Source of the DNA: Glutamicibacter soli
Lineage (GTDB): Bacteria > Actinomycetota > Actinomycetes > Actinomycetales > Micrococcaceae
Length of the DNA: 64,000 nucleotides
Assembly (NCBI RefSeq): GCF_003309065.1
Contig: NZ_POAF01000011.1
Coordinates: forward strand, 1 to 64,000
Direction of reading: 5' to 3'
The notes beneath the pieces were generated by a model, which saw only the letters and a list, made by a program, of their open reading frames with translations, was not told the origin of the DNA and did not search any database. This document shows, piece by piece, positions 10,001-53,372 of the stretch (its first letter is position 1; every line of letters starts with the position of its first letter). The translations under genes and the position numbers were made by a program.

Positions 10001-10364
10001 ATACCAAGTAGGTGGCAAATCAGTAATCAAATCTTGGTTTAGTTCGCGTAACCTTCGACCTGGCGGTTTGAAATCTTCACCTCTAGATCACATGCATGTA
10101 TCGGACTGGCAGTCTGACTGGACTAGTGAGTTCATTGACCTTGCTTCATTGCTAAGAAGACTGTCTGAACACGCAGTCGAACAACAACGAATTCTCGATC
10201 AAATCATGGGATTACCTCTAATCTCCATGGAAGATCTAGAAGTATCAGGAACAGTCTGGCCGGAGGCAGGTAAACGCGCCAAGCCCATTTACCCCACCGT
10301 TCTAGGATCGAATGCTGCTGGCGATCAGCAGGGCGAGTTCGATCTAACTATTGAGGAAGACTAG
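7008..10364 (+). CDS. Single-chain restriction-modification enzyme (type ISP/IIG-like N6-adenine methylase with nuclease domain)
   Basis: An 1118-residue polypeptide that appears to combine restriction and modification. Near the N-terminus D68...E82-V-K84 (RPDYG...YVEVK) is a PD-(D/E)xK-type nuclease motif. A helical linker leads to the methylase: YYTPREVVEEM, the SAM-binding motif DPAMGTGTFL (~residue 371) and catalytic NPPY (~residue 492). The C-terminal ~500 residues would be the target-recognition region. No SF2 helicase motifs are visible, so it is closer to type IIG/IIL than to LlaGI-type ISP enzymes. The GTG start at 7008 follows AGGAG by 5 nt. Base composition is lower in GC than the plasmid core, suggesting recent acquisition. 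Confidence 0.88.
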   Translation: MTNSPQWLIDAAVVFGDSCAAKLAGPGDKEAAIRSPLETFLGSFGTSIGVKAVFHDEVRDSERRVRPDYGVSINGAISGYVEVKAPQKSVDPDTFRGHDRTQWERQKDLPNLIYTNGTEWRLYRNGELCGQPEYLNGGALDDPSKVLVPSQGLEALLLDFLKWHPSAITSVGSLVRAVAPLTRLLRGEVLDQIKHEEKQIKAGKDPDIQPFLGLAQDWRALLFPSADNATFADGYAQTVTFGLLLARTENIDIQSRSLHSVGSSLGAEHSLMGKALQLLTDDVAKDFKVTLDLLVRVIGAVNWEKVRKGRRDTYLHLYENFLDLYDNELRKKSGSYYTPREVVEEMTRLTEDVLVTQLGKSQGFRDQQVLTIDPAMGTGTFLHTILERVAASAEHADGPGAVAGAVTQAAERLIGFELQMGPYAVAELRAHDLLALHGAKAPSGGMKLFVTDTLDDPHAEETQLGSGLKLLAKARKDANKVKAEENVTVVIGNPPYKELATSQGGWVANGSPSQDSKKKRTRAILEDFFSPAMRQYKAKLKNLYIYFWRWATWKTWESTTNQPDSDAGVVCFISTSGYVTGRPFVAMREYLRRESSDAWIIDLTPEGQTPDVPTRIFPMVRQPLSIGIFVRKSGTDTNLPARIRYVSLHGRQKEKFDQLAKLTLNGPEWKEARTGWTAPFTPASLNGWDDNPALDDLLPWYAPGIFATRTWIYSPSPELLNERWARLIAAPEAEKPELFKEGSEPRLHKSFPVLPGADTSKAITPLAKETNPVPTKPLQIGYRSFDRQWIIPDSRAIHRAAAPLWAARQENQVYTVELHTQVLKPGPGIVFSSLIPDYHHFKGSEGGRVLPALHPDGSANLAPKLVSSLEARLGLTIAEQDVLAYVAAVVSHAGYTSRFAEDLQTPGVRVPITTNATLWTQAVELGREVLWAQTYGSAYSEGTQRPKDNIRFANQDPRRVVSLSPVTALPEQIIYDAEAEEVHIGDGRFGPIPVEAWEYQVGGKSVIKSWFSSRNLRPGGLKSSPLDHMHVSDWQSDWTSEFIDLASLLRRLSEHAVEQQRILDQIMGLPLISMEDLEVSGTVWPEAGKRAKPIYPTVLGSNAAGDQQGEFDLTIEED

Positions 10365-10512
10365 ACTCTGCTCAGTCTTGCTGCACTCCTTTTCAACATG
10401 ATGTTTAACACGATAGGTGTTGAGGTTCGCCCGTTAGATGGTGTACCTTCCAGAATCCCCGAACGGGCCAAGGATCGGCTGACTGGCCATTTGTTCTAGC
10501 CCTGTTCTACGT

Positions 10513-10535
10513 AGGCCGCTGAAACTCAGCGGCCT
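10513..10535. terminator. Hairpin downstream of the RM gene
   Basis: AGGCCGCTGA-AAC-TCAGCGGCCT is a perfect 10-bp stem. It lies between the converging RM gene and the HA-domain pseudogene, so it may terminate both. Confidence 0.6.
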
Positions 10536-10554
10536 GCGCTGCCTAAGCGCTTGT

Positions 10555-11181
10555 TCAGCCGCGTCTATGCCAGGATGGCACAGCATCATCTAGTGCGGTC
10601 TTGCGCCATTCGATTAGGGTTCCTTTGGTGCGCTTCTGGTGTTGATTATGCAGCCACACGCCCAAACTACGTTCATACTCGGTGGCATAGTTCCTGTATC
10701 TAGGCAGGCTTCCAGCGACTTTTACGTAATCAACTACAGCGGCTAGTTTGGCTTTCCATGTCTCGTCTAAGCGTTGCTGGTGCAGGTTAACGTTTCAGTT
10801 GGGTAGCTGGTCCAGCAAGATGATCTTCGCTGCTGCCATCTTGCCCTGTTGGTAGGCGGTACGTTGGCTGGCTACCCACTGCGCCAGTGACCGTTCCTGG
10901 ACTTCGCCCTGGCTGCTAGGCAGCCGCTGGTTGATGGCATGGAACGTCAGGACTTCATCGAGTCGCCTGCGCCACGACGTGGTGGGGCGGTCGGGGTCGC
11001 GACGTGCTAGCGCTGCTTCGTGGGTTGCCCGTAGTCCTGGTGAATATTTTTCTCTCACCTGTAGGTGTAGGTGGACGGTAGCCACTATTTGGTGGCACCG
11101 GTCAGCGATTTCTCGCACGGTCAGACCAGCCGCGTACATCATGTCCCATTCTGGGTGTCGTGATACGTGCCAGCCCGTCAT
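10555..11181 (-). pseudogene. HA-domain protein, second copy, interrupted by TGA
   Basis: The open frame 10795-11181 is only the first 128 residues. Reading through the TGA at 10795-10797 in the same frame continues NVNLHQQRLDETW...YERSLGVWLHNQHQ...VPSWHRRG to a stop at 10555-10557, giving a total of 208 codons, the same length as the intact copy at 6134-6760. The intact copy has GGTTGGAACGTG where this one has AACTGAAACGTT, so the stop again replaces a conserved tryptophan through TGG to TGA. The N-terminal HTH and first HA repeat could still be made as a truncated protein. The C-terminal half remains uncorrupted, so inactivation looks recent. Confidence 0.85.
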
Positions 11182-11208
11182 TTCTCCAACCTACATGGTT
11201 TGTTTCTT

Positions 11209-11454
11209 TTAGTGGGTTCCCTGGTCTGGTTCTTTTCCGGTAGGTATTGGCGAGGGCAGGGTTTCCATCCAGCAGGTAGCGTTGATCGCTTGTTGCAGCG
11301 CGGCCAGGGCTTGAGCGACGGCCTGTTTCGTGTCGCGGTGGTCTTGGTTCCATGAATCGGTGCTCATGGTGATACGCCCACTAGCTGCGAGGTCTTCCAG
11401 CTCGTTAGCCAAGGCTTTGAGGTCATCGTAGATTTCCGAAGCATTGCGGGTCAT
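11209..11454 (-). CDS. Small helical protein, unknown function
   Basis: An 81-residue, mostly helical protein beginning MTRNASEIYDDLKALANELEDLAASG, with an amphipathic second helix (AVAQALAALQQAI). AGGAG precedes the ATG at 11454 by a suitable distance. It starts 27 nt downstream of the HA pseudogene's start side and is read in the same direction, so it may be co-transcribed with it. It shares a YDDL...W...helix pattern with the 3170-3475 protein. No recognised domain. Confidence 0.6.
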   Translation of the reverse strand: MTRNASEIYDDLKALANELEDLAASGRITMSTDSWNQDHRDTKQAVAQALAALQQAINATCWMETLPSPIPTGKEPDQGTH

Positions 11455-11534
11455 TGGTTTTCTCCTGATTTTCAGTTAGTTAAAGGTCGGGCATCGGAGG
11501 GTAGGAAACAAGCCTCGAGATACCGAGTTATGCG

Positions 11535-11701
11535 TGTAGCCTCCTGCCCACATGGGCGCGAAAAAAGCCCTCCCGCTCCGCTGCTTTTCTCACACACATG
11601 ATGGACAGCAGGAACCAATCGACCGACCGCACACAGCCCAAAAGTTGCGGTATCTGAGTTCTCTCGCGCTATGTGATCTTGGGTTGTGCACGGATCTCTG
11701 A
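11535..11701 (+). repeat. Dispersed ~165-bp structured element, copy 1
   Basis: Begins GTAGCCTCCTGCCCACATG and ends TGCACGGATCTCTGA. Two further copies lie at 16521-16684 (minus) and 53841-54004 (plus). Conserved internal features are an AAAAGC...GCTTTT hairpin, and an outer pairing between the CTCCTGCCCACATG start and the CATGATGGACAGCAGG segment. The open frame through it (11472-11783 minus) is not conserved as protein between copies, so the element is non-coding. It could be a structured RNA or an origin/transfer-type DNA site. Confidence 0.75.
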
Positions 11702-11716
11702 GGCCATGCGCGCGAG

Positions 11717-11890
11717 TTACAACCAGGCATAAACAGCTGATGCCAGGCAAGTGATTGCACCGGCAAGCATCACGTACACCCAACGTTTATCGTGCGTTTC
11801 CGGCTTTAGTTGCTTACTAGCCAAGGCGACAACGGCAGCCCCGAGAACGAAAAATAGAATCGGCAATAGTGGCAAGTCGCTTAGGCGCAT
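11717..11890 (-). CDS. 57-residue two-helix membrane protein
   Basis: ATG at 11888-11890, stop TAA at 11717-11719. The product starts MRLSDLPLLPILFFVLGAA and has two hydrophobic segments (about residues 7-24 and 38-56) separated by a charged loop KQLKPETHDKRW, so a helical hairpin in the membrane is predicted. AGAAAG 8-13 nt upstream is a plausible ribosome binding site. It lies 33 nt downstream of parB on the same strand and may be the last gene of the par operon. Function unknown. Confidence 0.6.
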   Translation of the reverse strand: MRLSDLPLLPILFFVLGAAVVALASKQLKPETHDKRWVYVMLAGAITCLASAVYAWL

Positions 11891-11923
11891 GAACGTTCTT
11901 TCTATCGCACTACGGTTTGCGCA

Positions 11924-12331
11924 TTAGTCTTCCTTTTCTCCGTGGGCTGCTGCGCCCTTGGGCATGTCGTTGGCTTTCACAGCTGGCCAGGGCTGGCCAC
12001 CGTTGTATTCGGCTTCCAGGCGCTCTACTTCCTTCATCACTGCCTTGTGAATGAACTGCGAGAGATTGCGGTTGCCCTCTGAAATCATCGTGTGCAAGAT
12101 GGCTCCGCGTACCCGGTCCGTATCACTCATGTCCTGATAGAACGACACTTTATGCGGGTACTTACGCTTTTTTACCAATTCTTCGGCGGCTGGCTTCGAC
12201 ACTGCGGGGGCAGCCTTGACGGCCTTTTTAGGTTCGTCCTGCCGTGGCGCGGCGGCTGGCGCGGCTGGCACAGGATTTACCGGGCTAGTTCCTGCCAGAT
12301 TCGATTTTCGGGCTGCTGGTCGGCCTGCCAT
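11924..12331 (-). CDS. parB: ParB-like centromere-binding protein (small, RHH-type)
   Basis: A 135-residue protein directly after parA (2-nt gap). The first ~55 residues are a flexible Ala/Pro/Lys-rich arm. The folded part, KVSFYQDMSDTDRVRGAILHT...LSQFIHKAVMKEVERLE, has the beta-strand plus two-helix layout of ribbon-helix-helix partition proteins and matches the actinobacterial plasmid ParB type. Such proteins bind centromere repeats, stimulate the ParA ATPase through the basic arm, and usually repress the par promoter. Clustered 14-bp palindromes at 13149-15513 are the natural candidate binding sites. The binding itself is inferred. Confidence 0.75.
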   Translation of the reverse strand: MAGRPAARKSNLAGTSPVNPVPAAPAAAPRQDEPKKAVKAAPAVSKPAAEELVKKRKYPHKVSFYQDMSDTDRVRGAILHTMISEGNRNLSQFIHKAVMKEVERLEAEYNGGQPWPAVKANDMPKGAAAHGEKED

Positions 12332-12333
12332 AG

Positions 12334-13128
12334 CTACTTAGCTCCTTGGATAGTGGTGAGGTGATCGGCGTACATCTCGCTTAGCTCCATCGCTTCGGCG
12401 CTCCCCCATTCATCGAGGGCTACTGATGCTTCGGTAGCATCTGCGATGACTACGCGCTTTGGAACTGGCGGGGTAAGCACCCTAAAGTTTCGGGCTTCGG
12501 CGGCCGCGTGCAGCTCGTCAAGCCAGGTTTGCCCTGCAATAGTGCGGCCTTCGTGCTGGTTCACCAGGACACCGGCCACTTGCAAGCCCTGGTTATAGTG
12601 CTCCCGCACGCTCTCAATGGTGCGAAGGAGCTTGGCCAGCCCGTCTAGGCTCCACTTCTTGGATTGCGTAACGATCAGCACCTTATGGGCTGCTGTCAGG
12701 CCGTTGATGGTGAGCTGATCCAAGCTAGGGGCACAGTCCACCAAAATGAGGTCGTACCGGTCGGCCACTTCTGCCAGTGCTTTGCGCAGCTTCGATTCCC
12801 GGCCGGCTCCCGTGGTGATCAGTTCCTCGCCTACGGATGCCAGGGTGTCGCCTGCGGTGGGCGCAATGTCCACGCCTGGCCAGATCGACGGCACGATAAC
12901 ATCTGAGAGTACTTCGTCGGCTCGGGCGCTCAGTACGTCCGCTAGGCCCACCTGGTCATCTGATACCGGCTCGGCGGCCAGCGCATCGGTTAGATTTCCC
13001 TGGGGGTCCAGGTCAACAACCAGGACACGCAATCCCCGCCGAACAGCGGCGCGCGCCAGGTTAACCGTTGTGGTTGATTTCCCGACGCCGCCCTTTTGGT
13101 TCGCCAGGGCGATGATCTCTGCGTTCAC
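12334..13128 (-). CDS. parA: ParA partition ATPase
   Basis: A 264-residue protein with deviant Walker A KGGVGKST at residues 12-19, Walker A' VVDLDPQGN and Walker B LILVDCAPS, which is the complete ParA/MinD ATPase core. There is no N-terminal HTH, so it is a type Ib-style ParA whose partner acts as repressor. Start is GTG 13128 behind GGAGG. ParA ATPases position plasmid copies by forming gradients on nucleoid DNA with ParB-bound centromeres. The promoter region (13149-13206) carries three AGTACT palindromes. Confidence 0.92.
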   Translation of the reverse strand: MNAEIIALANQKGGVGKSTTTVNLARAAVRRGLRVLVVDLDPQGNLTDALAAEPVSDDQVGLADVLSARADEVLSDVIVPSIWPGVDIAPTAGDTLASVGEELITTGAGRESKLRKALAEVADRYDLILVDCAPSLDQLTINGLTAAHKVLIVTQSKKWSLDGLAKLLRTIESVREHYNQGLQVAGVLVNQHEGRTIAGQTWLDELHAAAEARNFRVLTPPVPKRVVIADATEASVALDEWGSAEAMELSEMYADHLTTIQGAK

Positions 13129-13148
13129 GTTCTTACCTCCAATAGTGG

Positions 13149-13206
13149 TAACAGTACTAACAACTCTAAAAGTACTGTTAGGGGTATGTTTCTTATAGTA
13201 CTACCA
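13149..13206 (-). promoter_or_regulatory. parA promoter region with three AGTACT palindromes
   Basis: Three near-palindromes with an AGTACT core at 13149-13162, 13167-13180 and 13193-13206, packed 18-26 bp apart just upstream of parA. They are divergent members of the TAATAGTACTATTA set, consistent with autoregulation and/or a centromere. Confidence 0.7.
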
Positions 13207-13209
13207 AAG

Positions 13210-13434
13210 CTAGAGAGATTCGATCTTATCCGGCCTAAAGCCCGACCAGTGATCATTGGCTGTCACCACTACGGGTGCTTTCATGTAGCCCAGGCTGCGC
13301 ACGTAGTCCAACGCTTTCGCATCGGTAGATATGTCCACCTTTCGGTACTTGATCCCTTTCTTGTCCAGCGCTCGGTAGGTGGCGTTGCACTGCACGCATG
13401 AGGGCTTGGTGTAAACCGTGATTTCGGAGTCCAT
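13210..13434 (-). CDS. nrdH: NrdH-type glutaredoxin-like redoxin
   Basis: A 74-residue thioredoxin-fold protein with the redox pair C-V-Q-C at residues 12-15 (TKPSCVQCNAT), the cis-Pro motif APVV and the NrdH C-terminal signature W-S-G-F-R-P-D-K. NrdH carries electrons from thioredoxin reductase to the class Ib ribonucleotide reductase NrdEF, which is not encoded here. AAGGAG precedes ATG 13434. The gene lies right upstream of parA and has its own palindrome-pair promoter. Carriage on a plasmid maintenance block is unusual and could help dNTP supply during transfer, but that is speculation. Confidence 0.9.
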   Translation of the reverse strand: MDSEITVYTKPSCVQCNATYRALDKKGIKYRKVDISTDAKALDYVRSLGYMKAPVVVTANDHWSGFRPDKIESL

Positions 13435-13456
13435 GACTTCTCCTTCCTTCTAACTC

Positions 13457-13504
13457 TAATAGTACTGTTACCGGTGGCGTAATGCAACGGTAACAGTACT
13501 ATTG
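13457..13504 (-). promoter_or_regulatory. nrdH promoter with paired palindromes
   Basis: Palindromes at 13457-13470 and 13491-13504, centres 34 bp apart. On the minus strand TTGCAT-N17-TACTAT reads as a good vegetative promoter whose -10 lies inside the downstream palindrome, so binding there would block RNA polymerase. Confidence 0.7.
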
Positions 13505-13510
13505 GTGCCG

Positions 13511-13693
13511 TCATTTCGTCGCGTAGCGTCGAGCTGTTGCAATGTTCTGCATGAGGTCGATTACTGCCGCTGCATCGTCGGCGGGGCCGTGGTAGCGCTT
13601 GCGCGTTTCCTTGGCCAGCTCGGCGCGACACTCTGGCGCGATCCCTTGGATGGTCTCGGCGGCCATGCCCTTGATCTGTTCAATGGTGAGCAT
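13511..13693 (-). CDS. Small helical protein, unknown function
   Basis: A 60-residue protein, MLTIEQIKGMAAETIQGIAPE..., predicted to be helical with a charged centre. AGGAG lies upstream of the ATG, and a palindrome-pair promoter lies immediately beyond. It is not a recognised family. The strong ribosome binding site and dedicated promoter support it as a real gene. Confidence 0.6.
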   Translation of the reverse strand: MLTIEQIKGMAAETIQGIAPECRAELAKETRKRYHGPADDAAAVIDLMQNIATARRYATK

Positions 13694-13713
13694 TGGTCAA
13701 TCTCCTGTAACTC

Positions 13714-13754
13714 TTACAGTACTATTACCGCCGGTGTCGGTAATAGTACTTTTG
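13714..13754 (-). promoter_or_regulatory. Promoter with paired palindromes
   Basis: Palindromes at 13714-13727 and 13741-13754, centres 27 bp apart (the other pairs are 34). The shorter spacing removes less than one helical turn and keeps both sites upstream of the 13693 start. Confidence 0.65.
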
Positions 13755-13757
13755 GTG

Positions 13758-14168
13758 TTAGTTCGTCCTGTAGCGCGGGTTCAGCACTTCGGGGCCGTCG
13801 TAGTCGATGGCCAGCGCTGCGCGCTGTAGCTGCTCGATGCCGATCCCCTCGATTTTTGCGTGCTCTGTGCCGCGTGCGATTTCTCGGGCTTCAATCTCGA
13901 TTTCATCAGCGGGGGTCAGGCTGACCATGATGCCCATATTGCGGGGCCGCGTGCCGCGCGTTCCTCGCGTGGTCATCGGCAGGACTCTGGCGGTGAACAG
14001 CAGGCCGCCGCGCTGGTGCGCTCCTGGCACTGCGGTGAGGTCGCTAGCGCCGAGCGATCCCAGCACACCTAAGCCGAGTGCCTGCCGGAACTGCATTGCA
14101 TTGGCGCGATGCTCTTCGCTAGGGCCGCACACTGCCTGCTGGTCGTAGATGAAAATTGCCTTGTTCAT
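13758..14168 (-). CDS. Hypothetical protein in the AGTACT regulon
   Basis: A 136-residue protein. I used ATG 14168 (MNKAIFIYDQQAVCGPSEEH) because GGAAGG lies upstream; the longer reading from 14240 would run through the promoter palindromes. A central Arg/Gly-rich stretch (TTRGTRGTRPRN) is followed by an acidic helix. There are no transmembrane segments and no recognised domain. It is probably an accessory gene of the plasmid backbone. Confidence 0.6.
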   Translation of the reverse strand: MNKAIFIYDQQAVCGPSEEHRANAMQFRQALGLGVLGSLGASDLTAVPGAHQRGGLLFTARVLPMTTRGTRGTRPRNMGIMVSLTPADEIEIEAREIARGTEHAKIEGIGIEQLQRAALAIDYDGPEVLNPRYRTN

Positions 14169-14203
14169 GGGGTTTCCTTCCTTCTCGTTTTCTCTTCTAA
14201 CTC

Positions 14204-14251
14204 TAATAGTACTATTACCGCTACTGAAACGCAACGGCAATAGTACTATTC
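14204..14251 (-). promoter_or_regulatory. Promoter with paired palindromes
   Basis: A perfect TAATAGTACTATTA at 14204-14217 and a one-mismatch copy at 14238-14251. On the minus strand TTGCGT-N17-TACTAT spans the pair. Confidence 0.75.
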
Positions 14252-14277
14252 TTCACGCTTCCTGCTCGTCAGCGTTC

Positions 14278-14499
14278 TTATTCGCCGTCGGCTGCGGGGT
14301 GGTGCACCAAAGCTTTCTGGAACTTCTTGAACTCGATGCGTGAAACAAGCATGCAGGCCAGGAAAATTGACCACATGCTCAGCCGTGAAATCATTTCATA
14401 ATGGCGTGCCACGGCTGCACCCAATGCCACTGGCATGCAAAGCAGGGAAATAACCAAGTGGAGCTTCCCGGCTAGTGATACCTTCTTGTTGCGATTCAT
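14278..14499 (-). CDS. Small two-helix membrane protein
   Basis: A 73-residue protein with two hydrophobic helices, LHLVISLLCMPVALGAAVA (about residues 13-31) and MWSIFLACMLVS (about residues 42-53), and basic ends, so it is an inner-membrane hairpin. AGAAGGGGG precedes ATG 14499. It has its own palindrome-pair promoter. Function unknown; entry exclusion or mating accessory roles are possible but unsupported. Confidence 0.6.
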   Translation of the reverse strand: MNRNKKVSLAGKLHLVISLLCMPVALGAAVARHYEMISRLSMWSIFLACMLVSRIEFKKFQKALVHHPAADGE

Positions 14500-14540
14500 G
14501 TCGAACCCCCTTCTATTTGCTTTCCTTTACTCCTTAACTC

Positions 14541-14588
14541 TAATAGTACTATTACCGCTACTGGAAAGCAACGGTAATAGTACTATTA
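14541..14588 (-). promoter_or_regulatory. Promoter with two perfect palindromes
   Basis: Two perfect TAATAGTACTATTA copies at 14541-14554 and 14575-14588, centres 34 bp apart. On the minus strand TTGCTT-N17-TACTAT forms the promoter core. This is the cleanest member of the set. Confidence 0.8.
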
Positions 14589-14596
14589 GTTGAGGT

Positions 14597-15487
14597 TTAG
14601 GCGGCTTCTTGGGTTTCTTCCGGCTCAGTGATGGCTTCGGCTAGTTGGTGTGCTGCTTTGAGGACTCGGGCTGCGGTGTCCTTGATCATTTCGGTGTCTC
14701 CTTGGCTCCATCCGGCGACGTAGCCGATGCTGTAGGCGCTGGTGTCCAGTCCGAGGATTCCGGCGACGATGTAGGCCACGCTCTCGGCTTCGGTTTCCTT
14801 GATGCCCCGGTGCTCGATGTATTCGGCGGCTTCTTCTTCGGTGCTGTGTAGGATCACGTGGGCGGCTTCGTGTAGTGCGGTTTTGGCTGCCTGTGCTGGT
14901 GCTAGTGCGGTGTCGATGACTACCTGGCGGCTGCCGTCCGTGGTGGTGTAGCCGTTGGTGCTGCCGCTGATCGGCTCGCGGGTGACAGTCCAGCCATGGC
15001 CGGTGAGATAGTCGGTCACTGCCTGGGTGATGCCCTGGGGGTCGTCGCCGGTGAGCTTGTGGGCGATGGTGCTGGGGTCTTCGGCTTCGGGGTCGATTAG
15101 ATCGGTCTGGGCCATGTCGAACACGCTCACGGGGAAGAATCGCACCGCGCTGTGCTCCTTTTCTTCTCCGGTCTGCTCGTCTTCTGCCGTCCATTTGACG
15201 TTGCGGCCGCCGAAAATGCGGATGCCGGTTTCTCCCTTGCGTACCTGGCGGCCGAGGTTCTGCCAGGTGCGGTATCCGGCGACGTGGGTAGCGCCTGGGC
15301 ACTGGGCCATGATCAGCAGTAGGTTTCCTACGCTGTAGCGGTGGAAGGCCTGGGCGAAATTCAGGTAGTTAATCCATGCGTCGCTGTTGCGCAGCTGCTC
15401 GACCTGTTCAGCGATTTTTGTCTGCATTGCTTCGGCTTCGGCGCGGCGCTGGTCGGCGGTCTTGGTGTTCTTGATCTTGCGTGCCAT
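14597..15487 (-). CDS. ArdC-like antirestriction protein with metallopeptidase domain
   Basis: A 296-residue protein. The N-terminal domain (SDAWINYLNFAQAFHRYSVGNLLLIMAQ...TWQNLGRQVRKGETGIRIF) is the ArdC ssDNA-binding domain, and the C-terminal part has H-E-A-A-H (zinc-binding HExxH of the ImmA/IrrE type) with a downstream glutamate region (ETEAESVAYIVAGILGLDTSAYS). ArdC-type proteins protect incoming single-stranded plasmid DNA from host restriction. ATG 15487 is chosen because GGAGG lies 8 nt upstream, trimming ~70 residues from the longest frame. One AGTACT palindrome precedes it. Confidence 0.82.
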   Translation of the reverse strand: MARKIKNTKTADQRRAEAEAMQTKIAEQVEQLRNSDAWINYLNFAQAFHRYSVGNLLLIMAQCPGATHVAGYRTWQNLGRQVRKGETGIRIFGGRNVKWTAEDEQTGEEKEHSAVRFFPVSVFDMAQTDLIDPEAEDPSTIAHKLTGDDPQGITQAVTDYLTGHGWTVTREPISGSTNGYTTTDGSRQVVIDTALAPAQAAKTALHEAAHVILHSTEEEAAEYIEHRGIKETEAESVAYIVAGILGLDTSAYSIGYVAGWSQGDTEMIKDTAARVLKAAHQLAEAITEPEETQEAA

Positions 15488-15499
15488 GAGATGTACCTC

Positions 15500-15513
15500 C
15501 AAAAGTACTATTA
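15500..15513 (-). promoter_or_regulatory. Single AGTACT palindrome upstream of the ardC-like gene
   Basis: CAAAAGTACTATTA, a half-degenerate copy of the palindrome, immediately upstream of the GGAGG of the ardC-like gene. Unlike the other genes there is no partner site 34 bp away. Confidence 0.55.
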
Positions 15514-15807
15514 GGGCTAAATGAGATGCTCGGTTGATCACCTCGTTCCTGATAAGCGGAGCATTCCTGGCATAAGGTCGCGTAGCGCAACCCGCAGGGC
15601 GGTGGGGGAGAGAATTTCTGGGCGGGATAAGGGAGCTTGCGACCGCGCCCGGAAAATCTCGGAGGAGCCGGGGCGTAGCCCTTGCGCGCAGCGGCCGGCC
15701 AGGCATGATGGAGCGCCAGGAACGAGGTACGAAAGAGTGGGGTAGGGGATAGGTCGGCCGCGTGCGGCCGTCCTTTTGTCTGTGCCAGGGCGTAGCCTTG
15801 GCTCGTT
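15514..15807. other. Intergenic between divergent genes
   Basis: GC-rich, with no supported ORF. CGGCCGC-GT-GCGGCCG at 15755-15770, followed by TCCTTTT, can form a terminator-like hairpin on the plus strand. CATGATGGAGCGCCAGGAAC at 15703-15722 loosely resembles a segment of the dispersed 165-bp element, but the rest does not match. Confidence 0.4.
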
Positions 15808-16098
15808 ATGTCTGACGAATTTGTTGAGGTGCGTTTTACGGCGGCTGGTGTGCCGTGGAAGATTCGGCGCGGCGGCCGTGTCTGGCAGGCCGCGGTCGAG
15901 CCGAGCCGTCATTTTGAGCGGGTGAACTGGTGGGAAGACCACTCGTTCAAAATCAAGAAGGGGGCTGCTGATCCTATTGATTTTGCGGTGTGGCGGGTGC
16001 AGGTGAGGTTAGGGGCTAATCCCCGTTCGGATCTGCTGACATGGGATCTGGTAGAGCATCCTCGGGATGGTTCCTGGACTGTGCGAGACGTGGCGTAG
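15808..16098 (+). CDS. DUF6504-like small protein
   Basis: A 96-residue, probably all-beta protein with regularly spaced tryptophans (VPWKIRRGGRVWQ...NWWED...FAVWRVQV...LLTWDL...GSWTVRDV). This layout recalls DUF6504 proteins, in which a W-rich strand pattern ends in a W-xL/V motif. The similarity is weak. The start ATG 15808 has no good ribosome binding site, and no promoter is obvious. It is followed by a textbook terminator, which supports the gene. Function unknown. Confidence 0.55.
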   Translation: MSDEFVEVRFTAAGVPWKIRRGGRVWQAAVEPSRHFERVNWWEDHSFKIKKGAADPIDFAVWRVQVRLGANPRSDLLTWDLVEHPRDGSWTVRDVA

Positions 16099-16110
16099 AT
16101 GCGCGAAAAA

Positions 16111-16139
16111 GGGCCGGCTAATGTAGCCGGCCCTTTTTT
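16111..16139 (+). terminator. Rho-independent terminator
   Basis: GGGCCGGCTA-ATG-TAGCCGGCCC followed by TTTTTT: a 10-bp GC-rich stem and a clean T-run, 13 nt after the stop codon of the 15808 gene. Confidence 0.92.
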
Positions 16140-16149
16140 GGTGAGCTGA

Positions 16150-16455
16150 TTAGATGAAAATATTAAGTATGAGCGCAATAAGCACGATGGGAACTGCGCT
16201 GTATCCCAGGATTGTGAGTGCTCGGTTTTCGGTCGTGTTCTTGTAGCCCTGGAAGTGCGCTGTCTGCCAGATAATACGCATCAAGCAGGCTACAGCCATG
16301 GTCACTGCTGCTAGTGCGATTCCAAAAAGTACTGTGAGTGATCCTGAGATGATCACGCCCAGGATCAGCAGGATGGGGATCAGCGGCGCTGCGAAAAAGA
16401 GGGGGCGTTGTTCGCGCATTTTTAGCGCCGCTTCGATTGCTTCTCCTTCGGGCAT
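16150..16455 (-). CDS. Small membrane protein, three helices
   Basis: A 101-residue protein with a short charged N-terminus (MPEGEAIEAALKMREQRP) followed by three hydrophobic segments (about residues 19-50, 51-60 and 80-101). No Shine-Dalgarno is visible before ATG 16455. It lies between copy 2 of the dispersed element and the terminator at 16111. No family recognised. Confidence 0.55.
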   Translation of the reverse strand: MPEGEAIEAALKMREQRPLFFAAPLIPILLILGVIISGSLTVLFGIALAAVTMAVACLMRIIWQTAHFQGYKNTTENRALTILGYSAVPIVLIALILNIFI

Positions 16456-16520
16456 ATGGCAAGTCTAGGTGTATCGTCGGACAGTTTGGGCTTCGCTGTT
16501 CTTTGGTGAGTGGTGCCTGG

Positions 16521-16684
16521 TCAGAGATCCGTGCACATGTCATGCTCGCGTGTCGTGTGCTAACTCGAGTACTAAACGTGTGGCTTGTGTGCGGTCGGTC
16601 GTTTGGTTCCTGCTGTCCATCATGTGTGCGAGAAAAGCCGCTTGCGGTTGAGCTTTTGTCGTGCCCATGTGGGCAGGAGGCTAG
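16521..16684 (-). repeat. Dispersed ~165-bp structured element, copy 2
   Basis: On the minus strand it starts TAGCCTCCTGCCCACATG, with the TAG being the stop codon of the replication gene (16681-16683), and ends TGCACGGATCTCTGA. The hairpin is kept as AAAAGC TCAACCGCAAGCG GCTTTT although the loop differs from copies 1 and 3. Here the element is the immediate 3' region of the replication-protein transcript. Confidence 0.75.
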
Positions 16685-18114
16685 GAGCATGCCCCGGTTC
16701 GGCGTGCGGCTGCCAGGGCGGCGCGTGCGGCTGCGGCACCTCGGGAAACGGTGCTGCGCAGTTGCGGGCGCTGCGCGGCTTGCTGGGCGCGGCGTTCGGC
16801 TGCTGCTCGTGCGGCGGCGCGCGCGTGGCTACTGGCGGCTGCTGCTCGCTGGGATCGGCTGGTCATGACTTCGCCGGTCGGGGTCATCCACTGACGGAGC
16901 CGGTAGAGGATCGCTGCCCGCAGGATGCGGCAGTAGTCGATGTAGGACTGAGTGTCACGATCATGCTGGGGGAGTGCCCCCCAAGCTTCCTTGCCGTGCA
17001 AACCGGGGGTGGTACGCCAATCCAGGGCGTGGTGAACATCTGAGATGGTCCAGCCCGCGTCAAAAAATGGTTTGACCATGTTTAGCACGTTTTTCTTGGA
17101 AAAACGTGCTAAATCTGGCATCAAACGCAAGATTTCAGCGGCAGCCGAGAGCCCCTGGCTTCTTGAGCTGATGCGTCGGTTGGCCGGCCACAGGGTGACT
17201 TGTCGCTGATCGCGGTGGCGAGTTTGCACGGCGCAGCCGTGCCCATGATTTTCAGTGCCGCGTAGCGGCTCATTGTGGGTGTTTTTCTCGCGCGTGCGCG
17301 TGTAGGAACTTACTTCGTAAGTGGTTAACCCCCCTACGGGGAGGGGTTCTAAGTTATTTCCACAGGTACCAGTGGCGCCCTTTTCTGTGGTGCTGGTACT
17401 GGTTGGTGCATCAGATGTGTCCTGGGGGCGTAGGCCGCGGCCGATGGGGCGGGTGATGACGTAGACGGGGGCTTCGTTGGTGGCTGGTTGGCCGGCTTTG
17501 GCGGCGTAGGTGGCGCTGCGGCCTGAGGCGACGATGCCGAGTAGGCCGTGGGTGCGCAGGAATTTGAGGGCGTTGCCGACGGTGGCGCGGCTGACGCGGG
17601 CTTTGGTGGCGATGGTGTCCCAGGTGATGCGCACGGTCATGGTGTTGTGGTCGGTGTAGCGCAGGAGTACCCAGAGCACGGCCATGATGTTGCGCTGGCA
17701 GTCTTTGCGGCGGCACAGCAGCTCGTCCAGGGACCGGGCCGCACGCCAGGCTTGTGCGGTGTGATCGACTTTGCGGCTGCCAGAGGGGATGGCCCAGGCA
17801 ATCGCGCGGGGGGAGGTTTCCTGCGCGCGGGAGACCCGCTTGATATGCAGCGGGGCAGGGGTATGTGCGTGTTTGGTGGCCAGGGATTCTTTGGCCGCGT
17901 TGAACTGCCGTTTGCCTTTGGCGGTGAAGTTTTCGGGGGTTTGGGCTTTGGTGAAGGGGCGGTGTCCTTGGGCGGTGTGGGCGAGGATCGCGGCCACACG
18001 GCCGTCACGTGGCCGGGTGCACCAACGTGCTTTTGTGGGCTGGATCGCGGTGTTTTGCGGCGTTTCGGGGGTGCTGGTGCTTGATTGGGCGCGCGGAGAC
18101 GCTACTATAGACAT
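16681..18114 (-). CDS. Putative plasmid replication initiator with winged-helix domain
   Basis: A 477-residue protein. The middle (IMAVLWVLLRYTDHNTMTVRITWDTIATKARVSRATVGNALKFLRTHGLL) is a clear winged helix-turn-helix of the type used by actinobacterial plasmid Rep proteins. A second conserved region follows at about residues 330-400 (RLMPDLARFSKKNVLNMVKPFFDAGWT...DVHHALDW). The C-terminus is a long Ala/Arg-rich helix. Its position near parAB and a small RHH protein supports a replication role. A transcription factor is the alternative. Start ATG 18114 has AGGA about 10 nt upstream. Confidence 0.62.
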   Translation of the reverse strand: MSIVASPRAQSSTSTPETPQNTAIQPTKARWCTRPRDGRVAAILAHTAQGHRPFTKAQTPENFTAKGKRQFNAAKESLATKHAHTPAPLHIKRVSRAQETSPRAIAWAIPSGSRKVDHTAQAWRAARSLDELLCRRKDCQRNIMAVLWVLLRYTDHNTMTVRITWDTIATKARVSRATVGNALKFLRTHGLLGIVASGRSATYAAKAGQPATNEAPVYVITRPIGRGLRPQDTSDAPTSTSTTEKGATGTCGNNLEPLPVGGLTTYEVSSYTRTREKNTHNEPLRGTENHGHGCAVQTRHRDQRQVTLWPANRRISSRSQGLSAAAEILRLMPDLARFSKKNVLNMVKPFFDAGWTISDVHHALDWRTTPGLHGKEAWGALPQHDRDTQSYIDYCRILRAAILYRLRQWMTPTGEVMTSRSQRAAAASSHARAAARAAAERRAQQAAQRPQLRSTVSRGAAAARAALAAARRTGACS

Positions 18115-18237
18115 ACAACGTCTTTCCTGTAAGAGGGTAAAGAAGGGGGAGCGTCCGGTGTGGTAACCGGAAGCTTCTGGTCAATCTGGTCTGTCTAGGT
18201 CGGCAAACTCATGCAGATCAGATTCGAATTCTTAGGT

Positions 18238-18260
18238 AAGTCCGCGCAGTGCGCGGACTT
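18238..18260. terminator. Hairpin with downstream T-rich tract
   Basis: AAGTCCGCGC-AGT-GCGCGGACTT is a perfect 10-bp stem, then TTCCTTTT on the plus strand. On the minus strand it lies just after the 18267 gene. Upstream of the replication gene it could also act as an attenuator or insulator. Confidence 0.65.
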
Positions 18261-18266
18261 TTCCTT

Positions 18267-18497
18267 TTAAGGCTTGTCGATAGGCAGTTTTCCTTCGTCA
18301 TCCTTTGTCGGAGCCCAAGCAGGTAGGCCCCGTTCATCAAGTTCAAGGTTTTCGATCATAAGATCGAACATGGCTGCACCTGACAGCCCAGCTTTGGATG
18401 CCAGGTCGGTGAAGAAATCCTTATTCTTCCGCTGGACCTTCCACCCTAAAGCGATGGGGTCGTTTACGGACCCTCGGGGTCGTCGTGGTGATGTCAT
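18267..18497 (-). CDS. Small ribbon-helix-helix-like protein
   Basis: A 76-residue protein. ALGWKVQRKNKDFFTDLASKAGLSGAAMFDLMIENL has the strand (basic) then helix-turn-helix arrangement of RHH/CopG-like repressors, including the xxGxS turn. Placed directly upstream of the replication gene, it may control copy number. ATG 18497 follows TAGGA. DNA binding is inferred from pattern only. Confidence 0.6.
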   Translation of the reverse strand: MTSPRRPRGSVNDPIALGWKVQRKNKDFFTDLASKAGLSGAAMFDLMIENLELDERGLPAWAPTKDDEGKLPIDKP

Positions 18498-18607
18498 AGT
18501 CCTACAATACGAGATAGCGACATCATTAAGAACCCTACGACACGCTTAGCTTGTATGTTCGAAACTTATTTTTTTCGACTGTGCTGTTGTTATCGTGCCC
18601 GCGAAAA

Positions 18608-18752
18608 TGTCTTACAACCAATGCTGCTCACTTCTTTGGGAGCCATAGGTTGCGACACATAGTTATAAGAATTTTGAACTGTTGAGTTTCCGCGGATTTT
18701 TCGGTTGGGGAGTGGTATCCATTGAGACGTCCCGCAACCCTAAGTTGTGAGA
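18608..18752 (-). repeat. Resolvase res-like site, copy without a resolvase gene
   Basis: The minus strand of this region aligns with the res region upstream of the resolvase at 58825. Both contain GACGTCTC, then AAAAATCCGCGGAAA(C/T)TCAAC, then CTATGTGTCGCAACC, in the same order and spacing, with scattered substitutions. The dyad that is perfect at 58661-58692 is imperfect here (18724-18752). No recombinase gene is adjacent. It is oriented opposite to the 58.7-kb site. Confidence 0.75.
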
Positions 18753-19207
18753 TGAGCGAACGTTTTCGCCTGTCGACAAAATCGCTATCAACCCACAATA
18801 TGCGGGGTGGTGATTTCAAAGCCAGGACTGAGCATTCGGAGAATCGGGTCGAGCCAAGGGCTCTTGATCCTCAGTTGCGCATCAATCGAGAGGGTATCCC
18901 TGAGAATACAGTGACCGGGTCCCGCTACCCAGGCAACGTCTATTTCGCGGTACTGCTGATGGAATCTGCGCGAGCGGAGCAGAGTCTGGTCTACATCGGA
19001 AGCAACCGCAGCCGCAGCAGGAACGGAAGAACGAAGGAGTCGGCTATTAGAACGATGGCGAGGGTGGTGCCCCCAGCTCCGAGGGAGCAGGGGACACCAC
19101 CCTTATATGCCCACTCTTGCTAAGTGTAGCGAGTAGAAGCTGTGCGCATCGTCTGGTGGAAAGGCAGTGGGGTTAGCCAGGATTAGTGAACGCTCAAACG
19201 GACGGTA
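18753..19207. other. No gene seen
   Basis: An open frame at 18722-19123 crosses the res-like site and has no family resemblance or ribosome binding site. I regard this stretch as non-coding or decayed DNA next to the IS5 insertion. Confidence 0.45.
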
Positions 19208-19211
19208 CTAG

Positions 19212-20163: not shown

Positions 20164-20251
20164 CTAGCAGGAAATCTTCGTGCGCATTGAAACAACATAT
20201 TCCAGCCCGTTGCTCTTTACGAGAACCCGTGGCAACGTTGCGTCGGCACTG

Positions 20252-20914: not shown

Positions 20915-21017
20915 TGTTACTCCTGGGTACGTTTCGCGTCGTCCTTCTGATTCTAACCTTGTGACCTGTGATTCCCGAGAAGCGGCAAATATAGGCGGGA
21001 AAGCTCTTGACCGCAAT

Positions 21018-21041: not shown

Positions 21042-21076
21042 AATTCATGTGCCATAGATCACACAAAGGAATGAAA

Positions 21077-22114: not shown

Positions 22115-22119
22115 CCGCC

Positions 22120-51371: not shown

Positions 51372-52850
51372 TTAGCGTTCGTACCCTGTATCTCGTGGTG
51401 TCGTACCCTGCCCGGTGCCAGCCAACCCGCGAGCTGGCGCCGTGTGAGACTGTTCTTGTTCGATCTTGCGCATCTCAGCGCGCACAATACTCTCGGCATC
51501 GTTGATCAACCGATCCACACCGGCGGTGAACCGTGGTCTATCGGTACGCAAGCTGTTCTCCAACATCAGCCGGCCCAAACGTCCTGCCTGCTTGGCAACT
51601 GCCACCCAACCGCGACCGTTGCCCGCCGCGAACCTCTGATTCAACCGGGCAGCATACCGGGCGTTACCCATCCCCTGGGTAGCGCGGGCATAAGACATAG
51701 ACAGTTGATGCAACGTTCCAGGATGATTGCGTTCCCATTGCAACGACAACCGCGCGTAAATGTTCGCCAACGTGTCCGGGCCAGTCTTATGGCTCATCAT
51801 GCGTTCCAGCTGCGCCACCGACAACGCGTGACCCTTCGTGCGAGTTTTCATCGCCGGGCTATTCGCCGAATGCAACGAGACAAGGTACGCGTCAGCAGCC
51901 GCTTTACCCTGTGCCCCGAACCGCTGGTTAATGTCAGGCCAACCTAGCGTGCGGTCAATCTTTGACGGTGCGTACCACACAGCCTTTCCGTCCGTGGCGC
52001 TATGGCCAAAGCTCACCCGGTAGCCACGCACTTCTGTGTTTGATCCTGGTTTGAAGCTGGGCGCAATATGCACCCCGTGATCTTGAGCATGGCGTAAGTA
52101 TTCTTCGGCCGAATTCGCGGTCGCCAATGCTGCTCTGAGGCGGCGTTGCAACTCGAACTTATCCGACAAGGCCATGTGGTTTCGGTCGGCCCTGGCACGT
52201 TCTGCCGGCTTCTCTCCTGCCAGTCCCTGTCCGTGTTCCTGGGATTCCAACCGTGGTAACCCGTACTCAACTTCTAGTTCACGGCACGCCACCTGGGCGC
52301 GATGAAAATCATTATGCGTGTGAGCTTTGGTGCCGTCCTCACGAACCATCGAGACCACTAAGTGAATATGGTCATTCCCGTTCTTCGACGCCCCGTGATG
52401 CACCGCAACCCAGCGCGAAGATTTCGCGCCATCCGGGTCAATGAACCCCATCTTCTCCACGAACGATCCGGCGATCTTCGCCCACTGCTCATCCGGTACC
52501 GAACCGTACCCGGCCTCAACAGCCAGGGAACAATGCCACACGTGCGCATCCTTCGACCCGGTACGGATTTTCTTACCGTTCTGGTCCTTCAAAAATGCGC
52601 CGGTTTCTTCGTCCTTCGCATACACCGGCTTGACCACCGACGTGCCGTGCAGCTTGCGCGGCGCATCCAAGATTTCGGCAATTTCAAACGCATCATACTT
52701 CGACAACTCCACACCCGGAGCGTAAGCAAAAGTCACTCGGTCATCGCCCGCGATCAGCCGCTGGTTCTCATGCTCGTTCGCACGTCCAGGCCCGACCAAG
52801 TAGTTCATCAAACCAGCCATACGACCACCGCGCACCACGTTCGGGATCAT
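51372..52850 (-). CDS. MobA/VirD2-like relaxase
   Basis: A 492-residue relaxase/mobilization nuclease. The N-terminus MIPNVVRGGRMAGLMNYLVGPGRANEHENQRLIAGD is the relaxase domain entry, and the metal-binding histidine motif is VHHGASKNGNDHIHLVVSMVR. The catalytic tyrosine is probably Y17 (MNYLVGPG) and/or the tyrosines near residue 43. It would nick oriT and pilot the strand to the recipient. The C-terminal half is helical with no primase motif. ATG 52850 overlaps the MobC-like stop (ATGA). Confidence 0.9.
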   Translation of the reverse strand: MIPNVVRGGRMAGLMNYLVGPGRANEHENQRLIAGDDRVTFAYAPGVELSKYDAFEIAEILDAPRKLHGTSVVKPVYAKDEETGAFLKDQNGKKIRTGSKDAHVWHCSLAVEAGYGSVPDEQWAKIAGSFVEKMGFIDPDGAKSSRWVAVHHGASKNGNDHIHLVVSMVREDGTKAHTHNDFHRAQVACRELEVEYGLPRLESQEHGQGLAGEKPAERARADRNHMALSDKFELQRRLRAALATANSAEEYLRHAQDHGVHIAPSFKPGSNTEVRGYRVSFGHSATDGKAVWYAPSKIDRTLGWPDINQRFGAQGKAAADAYLVSLHSANSPAMKTRTKGHALSVAQLERMMSHKTGPDTLANIYARLSLQWERNHPGTLHQLSMSYARATQGMGNARYAARLNQRFAAGNGRGWVAVAKQAGRLGRLMLENSLRTDRPRFTAGVDRLINDAESIVRAEMRKIEQEQSHTAPARGLAGTGQGTTPRDTGYER

Positions 52851-53239
52851 GCCGGCTCCCCCACGATCTTCAACGACTCCAAAACGTCATCAATGCGCCC
52901 CACCGTCGCGCGCAGATGCTCCAACGAATCGTGCAGCTCGCCCTTGATTTCACCACTTGTGTTCGCCACCCTGGCGATCTGGTTGATGTTATTCCCGACA
53001 GCGGCAAGGCCACGCTGCAACAAGAACAATGAGGTAATCAGCTCGTGACGCTCGGCAGCAGTCTCGCCACGAGACTGCGACAACGTGGACTCCACCAAGA
53101 GGCGAGCAACTGACACGCCAACTTCGTCTGCCATGACCTGCAACGCGAGGTTCTGCTCAACGGTCAGCTTCACTACGCGACGCACCGAACGGCCACCGGT
53201 CGCGTTCGGCTGACGCTTGCGTGAATCGAAGCGAGCCAT
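52847..53239 (-). CDS. MobC-like relaxosome accessory protein
   Basis: A 130-residue protein. The N-terminal basic segment plus VVKLTVEQNLALQVMADEVGVSVARLLVESTL is an RHH-like DNA-binding fold, and LQRGLAAVGNNINQIARVANTSGEI is the classic MobC motif (LxxxGxNxNQIA). MobC helps melt oriT and load the relaxase. ATG 53239 follows GGGAGG; the longer frame is rejected. Confidence 0.88.
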   Translation of the reverse strand: MARFDSRKRQPNATGGRSVRRVVKLTVEQNLALQVMADEVGVSVARLLVESTLSQSRGETAAERHELITSLFLLQRGLAAVGNNINQIARVANTSGEIKGELHDSLEHLRATVGRIDDVLESLKIVGEPA

Positions 53240-53269
53240 GCGAATCAACCTCCCAGCCCAGTGCAACAC

Positions 53270-53372
53270 CAATCGACCTAATAGGTCGATTGTCCCATCC
53301 GCAGAATCGAAGATCAAGGACACAAGCAACTTAGGGCACCTAAGTTTATAGCTTGCTCCGCCTCAAAGGCGG
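53270..53372. other. Candidate oriT
   Basis: Upstream of mobC, three inverted repeats lie within 103 bp. CAATCGACCTA-A-TAGGTCGATTG (53270-53292, perfect 11-bp arms), ACTTAGG-GCA-CCTAAGT (53329-53345) and CCGCCT-CAA-AGGCGG (53358-53372). The middle one reads TTAGGTGCCCTAAG on the other strand, loosely like the TAAGTGCGCCCT nic region of RSF1010-type plasmids. Nicking is inferred from position. Confidence 0.6.

What the first reader, a model, noticed from the sequence alone, without database searches (positions are those of the whole stretch)
13149..15513. A shared operator-promoter set (TAATAGTACTATTA) for six plasmid genes
Twelve near-copies of a 14-bp palindrome lie in six intergenic regions. 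Four of the sets are pairs, three of them with centres 34 bp apart, and on the coding strand TTGC(A/T/G)T-N17-TACTAT fits a promoter whose -10 is inside the site. A single regulator bound across three helical turns would repress all six genes, including parA, nrdH and the ardC-like gene. ParB (RHH) is the prime candidate, so the same sites may double as the centromere.
Basis: partly seen in the sequence, partly recalled or inferred. Interest (0 to 1): 0.78.

Follow-up and report, generated by a model that had tools for sequence, protein, structure and literature searches.

The report
Plasmid segregation protein's shared gene switch
A bacterial plasmid repeats one short DNA signal in front of its segregation genes and several genes that may help it settle in a new cell, and the pattern suggests that the plasmid's own segregation protein, ParB, binds these signals and keeps the genes quiet once the plasmid is established.

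Summary
In detail: 12 near-copies of TAATAGTACTATTA lie in six intergenic regions of a likely circular 64.6-kb actinobacterial plasmid (0.17 expected in the window). Eleven stand out against a matrix built only from other plasmids; the twelfth (13193) is doubtful.

The palindrome is the strong centre of a 9-bp-phased array of AGNNCT boxes. It recurs before parA, ssb, glutaredoxin, ardC and small genes on related plasmids: 54 of 58 sites in nine loci lie within 150 bp upstream of a gene start.

ParB is by far the best candidate. It belongs to PF18064, the family of pCXC100 ParB. Only parA and parB are found in all 11 site-bearing stretches compared. All 11 actinobacterial records matching the paired site encode ParB. 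On pTZC1 the 9-bp repeat before parA is spelled differently, and that spelling recurs before ardC. Some ParB relatives lack the sites.

Best reading: ParB represses parAB and an establishment regulon, giving a burst in new recipients, like StbA (R388), omega (pSM19035) and Reg (p576). Binding, repression and burst are untested. The 'three helical turns' geometry is not supported; the 9-bp register is.

The parts
11924..12331 (-). parB: 135-aa centromere-binding protein, PF18064 CB_ParB_C; proposed repressor
   Evidence: E 5.6e-23, 81 bits, cut-off 27; profile hit to 3no7 E 5.3e-9; Foldseek best hit 3no7
12334..13128 (-). parA: Walker-type ATPase (AAA_31); first regulated operon (parAB)
   Evidence: start codon GTG at 13128
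13149..13180 (.). operator/centromere array before parA: sites 13149-13162 and 13167-13180, centres 18 bp apart; 5 contiguous AGNNCT-like boxes at 9-bp steps
13193..13206 (.). third copy before parA; doubtful (10.5 bits, below the best shuffle)
13210..13434 (-). nrdH/glutaredoxin gene, target
   Evidence: PF00462 E 6.7e-15
13457..13504 (-). double operator with TTGCAT-N17-TACTAT promoter for nrdH (sites 13457-13470, 13491-13504; 34 bp)
13511..13693 (-). 60-aa ORF, target; no Pfam family above its cut-off
13714..13754 (-). double operator before the 60-aa ORF (sites 13714-13727, 13741-13754; centres 27 bp = 3 x 9)
13758..14168 (-). 136-aa ORF, target, no Pfam family
14204..14251 (-). double operator with TTGCGT-N17-TACTAT promoter (sites 14204-14217, 14238-14251; 34 bp)
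14278..14499 (-). 73-aa ORF, target, probable membrane protein by eye
14541..14588 (-). double operator with TTGCTT-N17-TACTAT promoter (sites 14541-14554, 14575-14588; 34 bp)
14597..15487 (-). ardC-like gene, target (ArdcN plus M78 peptidase domain)
   Evidence: PF08401 E 1.4e-13, PF06114 E 8.4e-7; start ATG at 15487
15500..15513 (.). single operator adjoining the ardC ribosome-binding site
   Evidence: 27.9 bits
15538..15615 (-). second conserved upstream element before ardC, not the palindrome; also on plasmid stretches without this ParB
   Evidence: E 2.7e-4
51375..53329 (-). relaxase (51375-52850) and MobC (52850-53329); place oriT near 53.3-53.6 kb by inference, so that, if the plasmid is circular, the regulon lies on the leading side (about 23 kb from oriT) and is transcribed towards oriT
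   Evidence: PF03432, PF05713; contig ends overlap by 65 bp

Best explanation
The sites are operators for ParB, the centromere-binding protein of a type Ib (pCXC100-like) partition system. Shown by sequence: each operator is a strong palindromic box (TAATAGTACTATTA), in many cases with weaker AGNNCT-like boxes at 9-bp steps. Operators sit just before start codons, mostly 12-52 bp away. The array before parA is of the same kind, and on pTZC1, where the parA array is spelled differently, that spelling recurs before ardC. Inferred: ParB dimers bind the boxes side by side and block RNA polymerase at parAB and at five further promoters (glutaredoxin, ardC, three small genes). When the plasmid enters a cell without ParB, these establishment genes fire at once, and as parAB is expressed ParB shuts the whole set, itself included. 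The parA-proximal array, with most contiguous boxes, is the best candidate for the partition centromere.
For: PF18064 and 3no7 assignment. The 9-bp register: around 103 sites in 12 loci, AGNNCT (at least 3 of 4) recurs at -9 in 49 and at +9 in 49; at +-18 in 18 and 20; at +-34 (the pairs) in 14 and 17; at nearly all other offsets in 0-10 (16 at -43); overlapping sites add to this. Seeds taken only from parA-upstream repeats, scanned over about 14-25 kb per locus, retrieve dispersed sites: W 4 of 4 non-seed hits are sites of this finding; L016 2 of 3, before ardC and between ardC and parA, the third inside a coding region; L017 6 of 6 on the genes' strand, five of them just upstream of a gene. 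Only parA and parB of the window's ORFs (45 aa or more, E up to 1e-4) match all 11 site-bearing stretches compared, several of which are parts of plasmids. All 11 actinobacterial records matching the pair encode ParB (some are near-duplicates). Of five actinobacterial-looking loci kept from a scan by DNA pattern alone, three (L087, L112, L117) encode it within 8 kb. 54 of 58 sites lie within 150 bp before a start (17.1% of the DNA, binomial P 8.6e-37, relatedness ignored). A matrix from other plasmids ranks 11 of the window's 12 sites on top. On L187 the palindrome sits in the 17-bp spacer of TTGCAT-N17-TAGAAT and similar.
Against: No binding or expression data. The strict promoter scan finds none of these promoters, and TTGC is at -35 in only 10 of 16 pairs with 32/34-bp spacing. 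ParB relatives without the sites: L010 and L012 (69% identity) have 0 and 1 sites at up to 3 mismatches; L176 (61% in the domain, a 3.3-kb locus that includes the parA start) has 1; L184/L191 (KVTFYQ), L185 (KVSFEQ), L186 (KISYYQ), L188, L189 and L190 have 0-1 each. The cross-seed test is not clean: the L017 seed finds 5 clusters in the window and 6 in L187, about as many as on its own plasmid; the L016 seed finds none in the window or L187 but 3 in L004, 2 in L017 and 1 in each control stretch without ParB. No model shows the RHH dimer: the single-sequence model was poor, and the better one shows two helices and no strand.
Confidence: 0.74

Rival explanations
1. Another regulator, plasmid- or host-encoded, binds the sites; ParB uses only the array before parA, or none.
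For: The window carries other small proteins that look DNA-binding by eye (18267-18497, 6134-6760). Several plasmids with a related ParB lack the sites.
Against: Only ParA and ParB match all 11 site-bearing stretches compared. Good sites are confined to the par-to-ardC block in the window. The parA array and dispersed sites share a spelling, clearest on pTZC1. Two stretches (19 and 15.5 kb) with ArdC relatives and no ParB match have no site.
Confidence: 0.13
2. The dispersed sites are mainly an extended centromere (many parS sites for loading, pairing or incompatibility); their place at promoters is incidental.
For: Same boxes as the parA array; pSM19035 has six parS sites at the promoters of three genes (PMC9499535, passages).
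Against: 54 of 58 sites lie just before gene starts, mostly at a narrow distance. Most window operators have only 2-3 contiguous boxes, and four contiguous repeats were needed for full ParA activation in pSM19035. In R388 the dispersed sites did not suffice for stability.
Confidence: 0.12
3. The 34-bp double sites work as hairpins: single-stranded-DNA promoters used while the plasmid enters (Frpo-like), or RNA structures.
For: The pairs form long inverted repeats; in 16 pairs the arms match each other better than shuffled partners (26 mismatches against 35.8, P 0.0012, relatedness not corrected). The genes appear to lie on the leading side, read towards oriT; leading-region genes can be expressed from the incoming strand (PMC11541004, passages).
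Against: In the folded hairpin -10 and -35 fall on opposite arms, so no linear promoter forms (reasoning from sequence). Single sites, 27-bp pairs and the L187 architecture keep the box but not the hairpin geometry. Symmetric 9-bp boxes would give this symmetry too.
Confidence: 0.06

Closest known systems
pCXC100 ParB, type Ib partition (PF18064; PDB 3no7)
   Same: Homologous C-terminal domain; parA-parB order; repeat array before parA; repeats in a 9-bp register (the 9-nt repeats of pCXC100 are recalled from Huang et al. 2011, which is not held here).
   Different: Here the boxes also stand at five other promoters. A review passage (PMC5016525) reports only direct repeats at the pCXC100 centromere; here inverted arrangements prevail.
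StbA of R388 (Gram-negative)
   Same: Repeats of 9 bp at its own operon, with fewer copies at other establishment promoters; needed for segregation; represses PardC and others (PMC3098194, PMC3937220, passages).
   Different: Repeat TTGCATCAT spaced by 2 bp; the ParA-like partner StbB is not needed for stability.
Reg of p576 (pLS20 family clade II)
   Same: RHH repressor of establishment genes including ardC; operators flank promoters; self-repression (PMC8708921, section 3.7 and passages).
   Different: Heptamer pairs TTATCCCnnTTATCCC; in the passages seen a dedicated regulator, not a partition protein.
Omega (ParB) of pSM19035
   Same: RHH partition protein whose parS repeats overlap several promoters and control expression (PMC9499535, passages).
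   Different: Heptads WATCACW; the promoters named are those of copS, delta and omega, not establishment genes.

Membership tests
pCXC100-type (type Ib) ParABS | ParB C-terminal domain homologous to CB_ParB_C / 3no7 | tested here: met
pCXC100-type (type Ib) ParABS | Walker ParA encoded directly upstream of a small ParB | tested here: met
   parA 12334-13128, parB 11924-12331
pCXC100-type (type Ib) ParABS | repeat array upstream of parA in a 9-bp register | tested here: met
   5 contiguous boxes at 3 of 4 or better; register; seven 9-bp repeats on pTZC1. The 9-nt rule for pCXC100 itself is recalled
pCXC100-type (type Ib) ParABS | dimeric ribbon-helix-helix fold | tested here: inconclusive
   sequence homology yes; monomer models show no strand; Foldseek best hit 3no7 with probability 1.00 but E 0.013
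pCXC100-type (type Ib) ParABS | ParB binds the repeats, stimulates ParA, stabilises the plasmid | not testable with these tools
   needs bench work
Omega / pSM19035 regulators | 7-bp WATCACW heptads | tested here: not met
   register is 9 bp, box AGNNCT; works alike, not a member
p576 Reg (EGeRS2) | dual heptamers TTATCCCnnTTATCCC at establishment promoters | tested here: not met
   operator consensus differs; works alike, not a member
R388 StbA | 9-bp TTGCATCAT repeats spaced by 2 bp | tested here: not met
   uninterrupted 9-bp register, different sequence; StbA protein homology was not searched
Frpo/ssi single-stranded-DNA promoters | hairpin that rebuilds a double-stranded -35/-10 promoter | tested here: inconclusive
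   arm matching P 0.0012, but -10 and -35 fall on opposite arms

The most novel reading that the evidence does not exclude
Across actinobacterial plasmids, from Corynebacterium and Cutibacterium to Arthrobacter relatives, the partition protein is also the plasmid-presence sensor. One set of centromere boxes, whose spelling shifts with the plasmid's ParB, couples segregation to a self-limiting burst of anti-restriction and single-strand-binding genes in every new host. ParB bound at all these promoters at once also forms one extended partition complex over the block, so that establishment genes switch off exactly when the centromere is filled.
Probability: 0.33. Interest if true: 0.74.

Novelty: new variant of a known kind. 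Interest (0 to 1): 0.6.

Why it matters
I found no description of how plasmids of this actinobacterial kind time their establishment genes in the searches made (capped listings of an open-licence library), and these backbones carry resistance genes (tet(Z) on pAG1, tet(W) and erm(50) on pTZC1). A ParB with a solved relative, a candidate 9-bp code and at least one plasmid with a different spelling make the link between partition and establishment directly testable. They may also give a natural series for how RHH proteins change DNA specificity.

Tried and rejected
Frpo-like hairpin promoter: considered seriously because of gene orientation and arm complementarity; set aside because -10 and -35 do not share an arm.

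'Three helical turns': 34 bp is about 3.2 turns and not a multiple of the 9-bp register; other pairs are at 27 and 32 bp.

By GC content and site count I kept L031, L087, L092, L112 and L117; ParB was found in L087, L112 and L117. L020, L038 and L059 have a different palindrome pair. The viral-contig scan with the same pattern gave 40 stretches; screened only by GC and site count, none looked related. The ParB scan of viral contigs found no relative. ParB in 394 genomes of the class: 6 matches including the own one; the five others' loci of about 3 kb have no site at up to 2 mismatches and 0-1 at up to 3.

Single-sequence structure prediction gave one long helix at low confidence and was not used. 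Rfam: no match in five sources. The second element: RNAalifold found no compensatory pair on the MAFFT alignment, although hand-registered hairpins all fold; left as a lead. Its model found nothing in the own genome at E up to 0.001, although the window copy scored E 2.7e-4 over 0.6 Mb.

Rows dropped: one search used only sites at up to 2 mismatches of 11 loci; L005 and L006 were left out as near-duplicates of L002 and L007. In one search identical pairs were merged and L092 was taken in an unchecked orientation. One search counted nine annotated loci. One search compared seven loci (window cut to 8001-28000, L004 to 10001-30000) and five seeds chosen by eye, with single-base shuffles as threshold.

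Full report
Observation. A scan for TAATAGTACTATTA with up to 3 mismatches gives 13 matches in the 64-kb window, 12 of them at 13149-15513; shuffles give 0.17 on average and at most 3. In the whole 3.84-Mb genome 10 of the 12 matches at up to 2 mismatches, and 12 of 22 at up to 3, are in this block; the pattern read backwards gives 27, so the clustering and not the total is unusual. The sets are: three copies before parA, pairs before nrdH (34 bp between centres), a 60-aa ORF (27), a 136-aa ORF (34) and a 73-aa ORF (34), and one copy before ardC. All six target genes are on the minus strand. The contig is 64,634 bp and its first 65 bases equal its last 65, which suggests a circular plasmid of about 64.6 kb; the overlap lies in what looks by eye like an IS transposase, so this is not proof.

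Conservation. Distant BLAST of the block found 196 plasmid records. I fetched annotated stretches of 25 plasmid records (one further piece of one of them). The same palindromes stand in the corresponding intergenic regions of Miniimonas pS16-2, Cryobacterium pA10BH1, Glutamicibacter pR912B, Corynebacterium pAG1 and others. A 26-bp matrix made only from 58 sites of ten other plasmids, scanned over the window, ranks 11 of the 12 sites first; the copy at 13193 falls below the best shuffle. In nine annotated loci, 54 of 58 sites at up to 2 mismatches lie within 150 bp upstream of a gene start, a zone that covers 17.1% of the DNA; the site nearest a start is 12-52 bp away in all cases but one (117 bp, parA of L015). 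The genes include parA, ssb, glutaredoxin/nrdH, ardC, DUF3560, DUF6349 and small unknown genes.

Anatomy. Around 103 sites in 12 loci the box AGNNCT (at least 3 of 4 bases) recurs at exactly -9 in 49 and at +9 in 49, with smaller peaks at +-18 (18 and 20) and at +-34 (14 and 17, the pairs). Overlapping sites add to this count. The extended consensus in coding orientation, from 72 sites of 11 loci, is about TANCNCTAATAGTACTATTAGNGNTA. Before the window's parA there are five contiguous boxes matching at 3 of 4 or better; the other operators have at most two or three. At the 34-bp pairs, TTGCNT-N17-TACTAT puts the -10 in the downstream palindrome; TTGC is at that place in 10 of 16 pairs with 32/34-bp spacing, while TACTAT is nearly forced by the way sites were chosen. 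On Arthrobacter YC-RL1 plasmid 2 (L187) the palindrome lies in the 17-bp spacer between TTGCAT and TAGAAT or TACAAT, the classical place for a repressor. The strict sigma-70 scan finds none of the window promoters.

Which protein. ParB (135 aa) matches PF18064, centromere-binding protein ParB C-terminal, with E 5.6e-23. A four-sequence profile finds one PDB sequence, 3no7, with E 5.3e-9. A model of the domain, moderate at pLDDT 73.5, has two helices after an extended segment, and its best Foldseek hits are the two chains of 3no7, ParB of pCXC100 (probability 1.00, E 0.013), followed by far weaker hits (E 2.3 and more) that include Arc and NikR (RHH proteins, recalled). The first single-sequence model was poor. 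Of the window's ORFs of 45 aa or more, only parA and parB have relatives in all 11 site-bearing stretches compared; most of these stretches are parts of plasmids, so genes outside them were not seen. A 63-bp pair query against 72,556 plasmids gave 15 records: four E. coli matches of 23 bp taken as chance, and 11 actinobacterial records, all 11 of which are among the ParB hits; some of the 11 are near-duplicates. Conversely, of 12 fetched loci with a ParB of 58-77% identity (17 such records were listed), ten have at least four sites at up to 3 mismatches. The exceptions, L010 (0) and L012 (1), are Cutibacterium plasmids whose tables show no full-length parA directly before parB (these tables omit pseudogenes). 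Further relatives: L014, L015 and L187 (58, 47 and 46%) have 10, 6 and 11 sites; L176, L184/L191, L185, L186, L188, L189 and L190 have 0 or 1. Two stretches with ArdC relatives and no ParB match, L182 and L183, have none.

Spelling. On C. acnes pTZC1 (L016; beta-strand RTSFKH) parA is preceded by seven 9-bp repeats of the type CNAAYNNNA, and on Gulosibacter pARLON1 (L017; KMGYYA) by repeats of the type YAWTAGNNN, closer to the window's. Matrices made from those parA arrays alone pick out, in the same locus, the region just before ardC (7937) and one between ardC and parA (8859) on L016, plus one hit inside a coding region; and six places on the genes' strand on L017, four of them directly upstream of an annotated gene by coordinates, one about 44 bp before ssb, and one at the end of ardC. 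The window's parA seed finds four non-seed clusters, all of them sites of this finding. Control stretches without this ParB give 0 hits for four of five seeds and one hit each for the L016 seed. The seeds are not fully specific: the L017 seed finds 5 clusters in the window and 6 in L187, and the L016 seed finds 3 in L004 and 2 in L017 but none in the window or L187. So the parA array and the dispersed sites share a spelling on each plasmid tested, which is what a common ligand predicts; a clear change of spelling is seen only on L016.

Mechanism. Most likely ParB dimers line up on 9-bp boxes and shut the promoters. RHH partition proteins are known as repressors (PMC5016525, passages), and those of the pSM19035 kind control genes whose promoters overlap parS (PMC9499535, passages). 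The regulon makes biological sense as an establishment set: ArdC of R388 is needed in the recipient, not in the donor (PMC7213743, abstract). StbA of R388 binds 9-bp repeats at its own operon, the same motif stands at other establishment promoters, it represses PardC and serves segregation (PMC3098194 and PMC3937220, passages), and genes under such negative loops, ardC and ssb among them, rose right after conjugation. Reg of p576, an RHH protein, represses establishment genes of Bacillus plasmids (PMC8708921, passages and section 3.7). In the window the relaxase and MobC put oriT near 53.3-53.6 kb by inference; relaxase genes usually enter last (PMC11541004, passages), so the block, about 23 kb away across the contig ends, lies on the leading side, read towards oriT. 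By coordinates the gene block has the same orientation on L002, L004, L008, L188 and L184/L191. oriT itself was not located. Binding, repression and burst are inferred, not shown.

Literature. A search for AATAGTACTATT anywhere in 5.39 million papers found one unrelated paper. Searches on partition proteins as regulators, zygotic induction and pAG1/pTET3 (listings only, 12 of 25 shown, except for the papers named) showed no description of this site set. In PMC6794481 (passages) I saw nothing on such sites. The primary papers on pCXC100 and p576 that I asked for are not held, so prior description cannot be excluded; the nine 9-nt repeats of pCXC100 are recalled.

Verdict. It is a new variant of a known kind: the partition family is known, and the use of its centromere boxes as operators of an establishment regulon in Actinobacteria appears new within the searches named.

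Noticed in passing
window 15538-15615 (-); L003 11556-11642 (-), L013 3014-3100 (+), L183 9331-9417 (-): A second conserved upstream element of about 90 nt (CTCTCTCCCCCACCGCCCTNCGGGTTGCACT, then a variable hairpin and GGCAAAAAAACG) stands before ardC, glutaredoxin, a large ParB-N gene and others, also on two stretches without this ParB: 28 hits at E up to 0.05 in 34 sources (which includes its training sequences and near-duplicate loci). No Rfam match in five sources. It may be a structured promoter or leader of leading-region genes.
   Followed up: partly
L191 6637-8073 (Brachybacterium pCBA3105-1): Before three genes an AATAACTCTATT- or AATCACTCTATT-like motif replaces AATAGTACTATT, on a plasmid whose ParB has KVTFYQ for KVSFYQ; a possible small specificity change (read by eye, not tested).
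   Followed up: no
L020 6976-7024, L038 4889-4937, L059 3736-3784: A different conserved pair, AAATAGTACTATGA and TCATAGTACTATT(T/G), with centres 35 bp apart, in three actinobacterial MAG contigs of about 50% GC; origin and regulator unknown.
   Followed up: no
window 1-65 and contig C2 64570-64634: The first and last 65 bases of the contig are identical, as expected for a circular plasmid of about 64.6 kb, though the overlap lies in a possible IS element.
   Followed up: partly
window 6134-6760 and 10795-11181 (-): Two closely similar genes (by eye) that flank a large ORF (7008-10364); the first has a helicase-associated domain (PF03457). They look like a duplication; the large ORF was not searched.
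   Followed up: no
window 54201-55196 (-): A zeta-toxin-like gene (PF06414, E 1.1e-16) beside the presumed oriT; none of the 22 best-scoring ParB-box places lies before it.
   Followed up: no
window 13129-13434: The window lacks the ssb gene that lies between parA and glutaredoxin on relatives such as L002, L003 and L004; nrdH follows parA directly.
   Followed up: no
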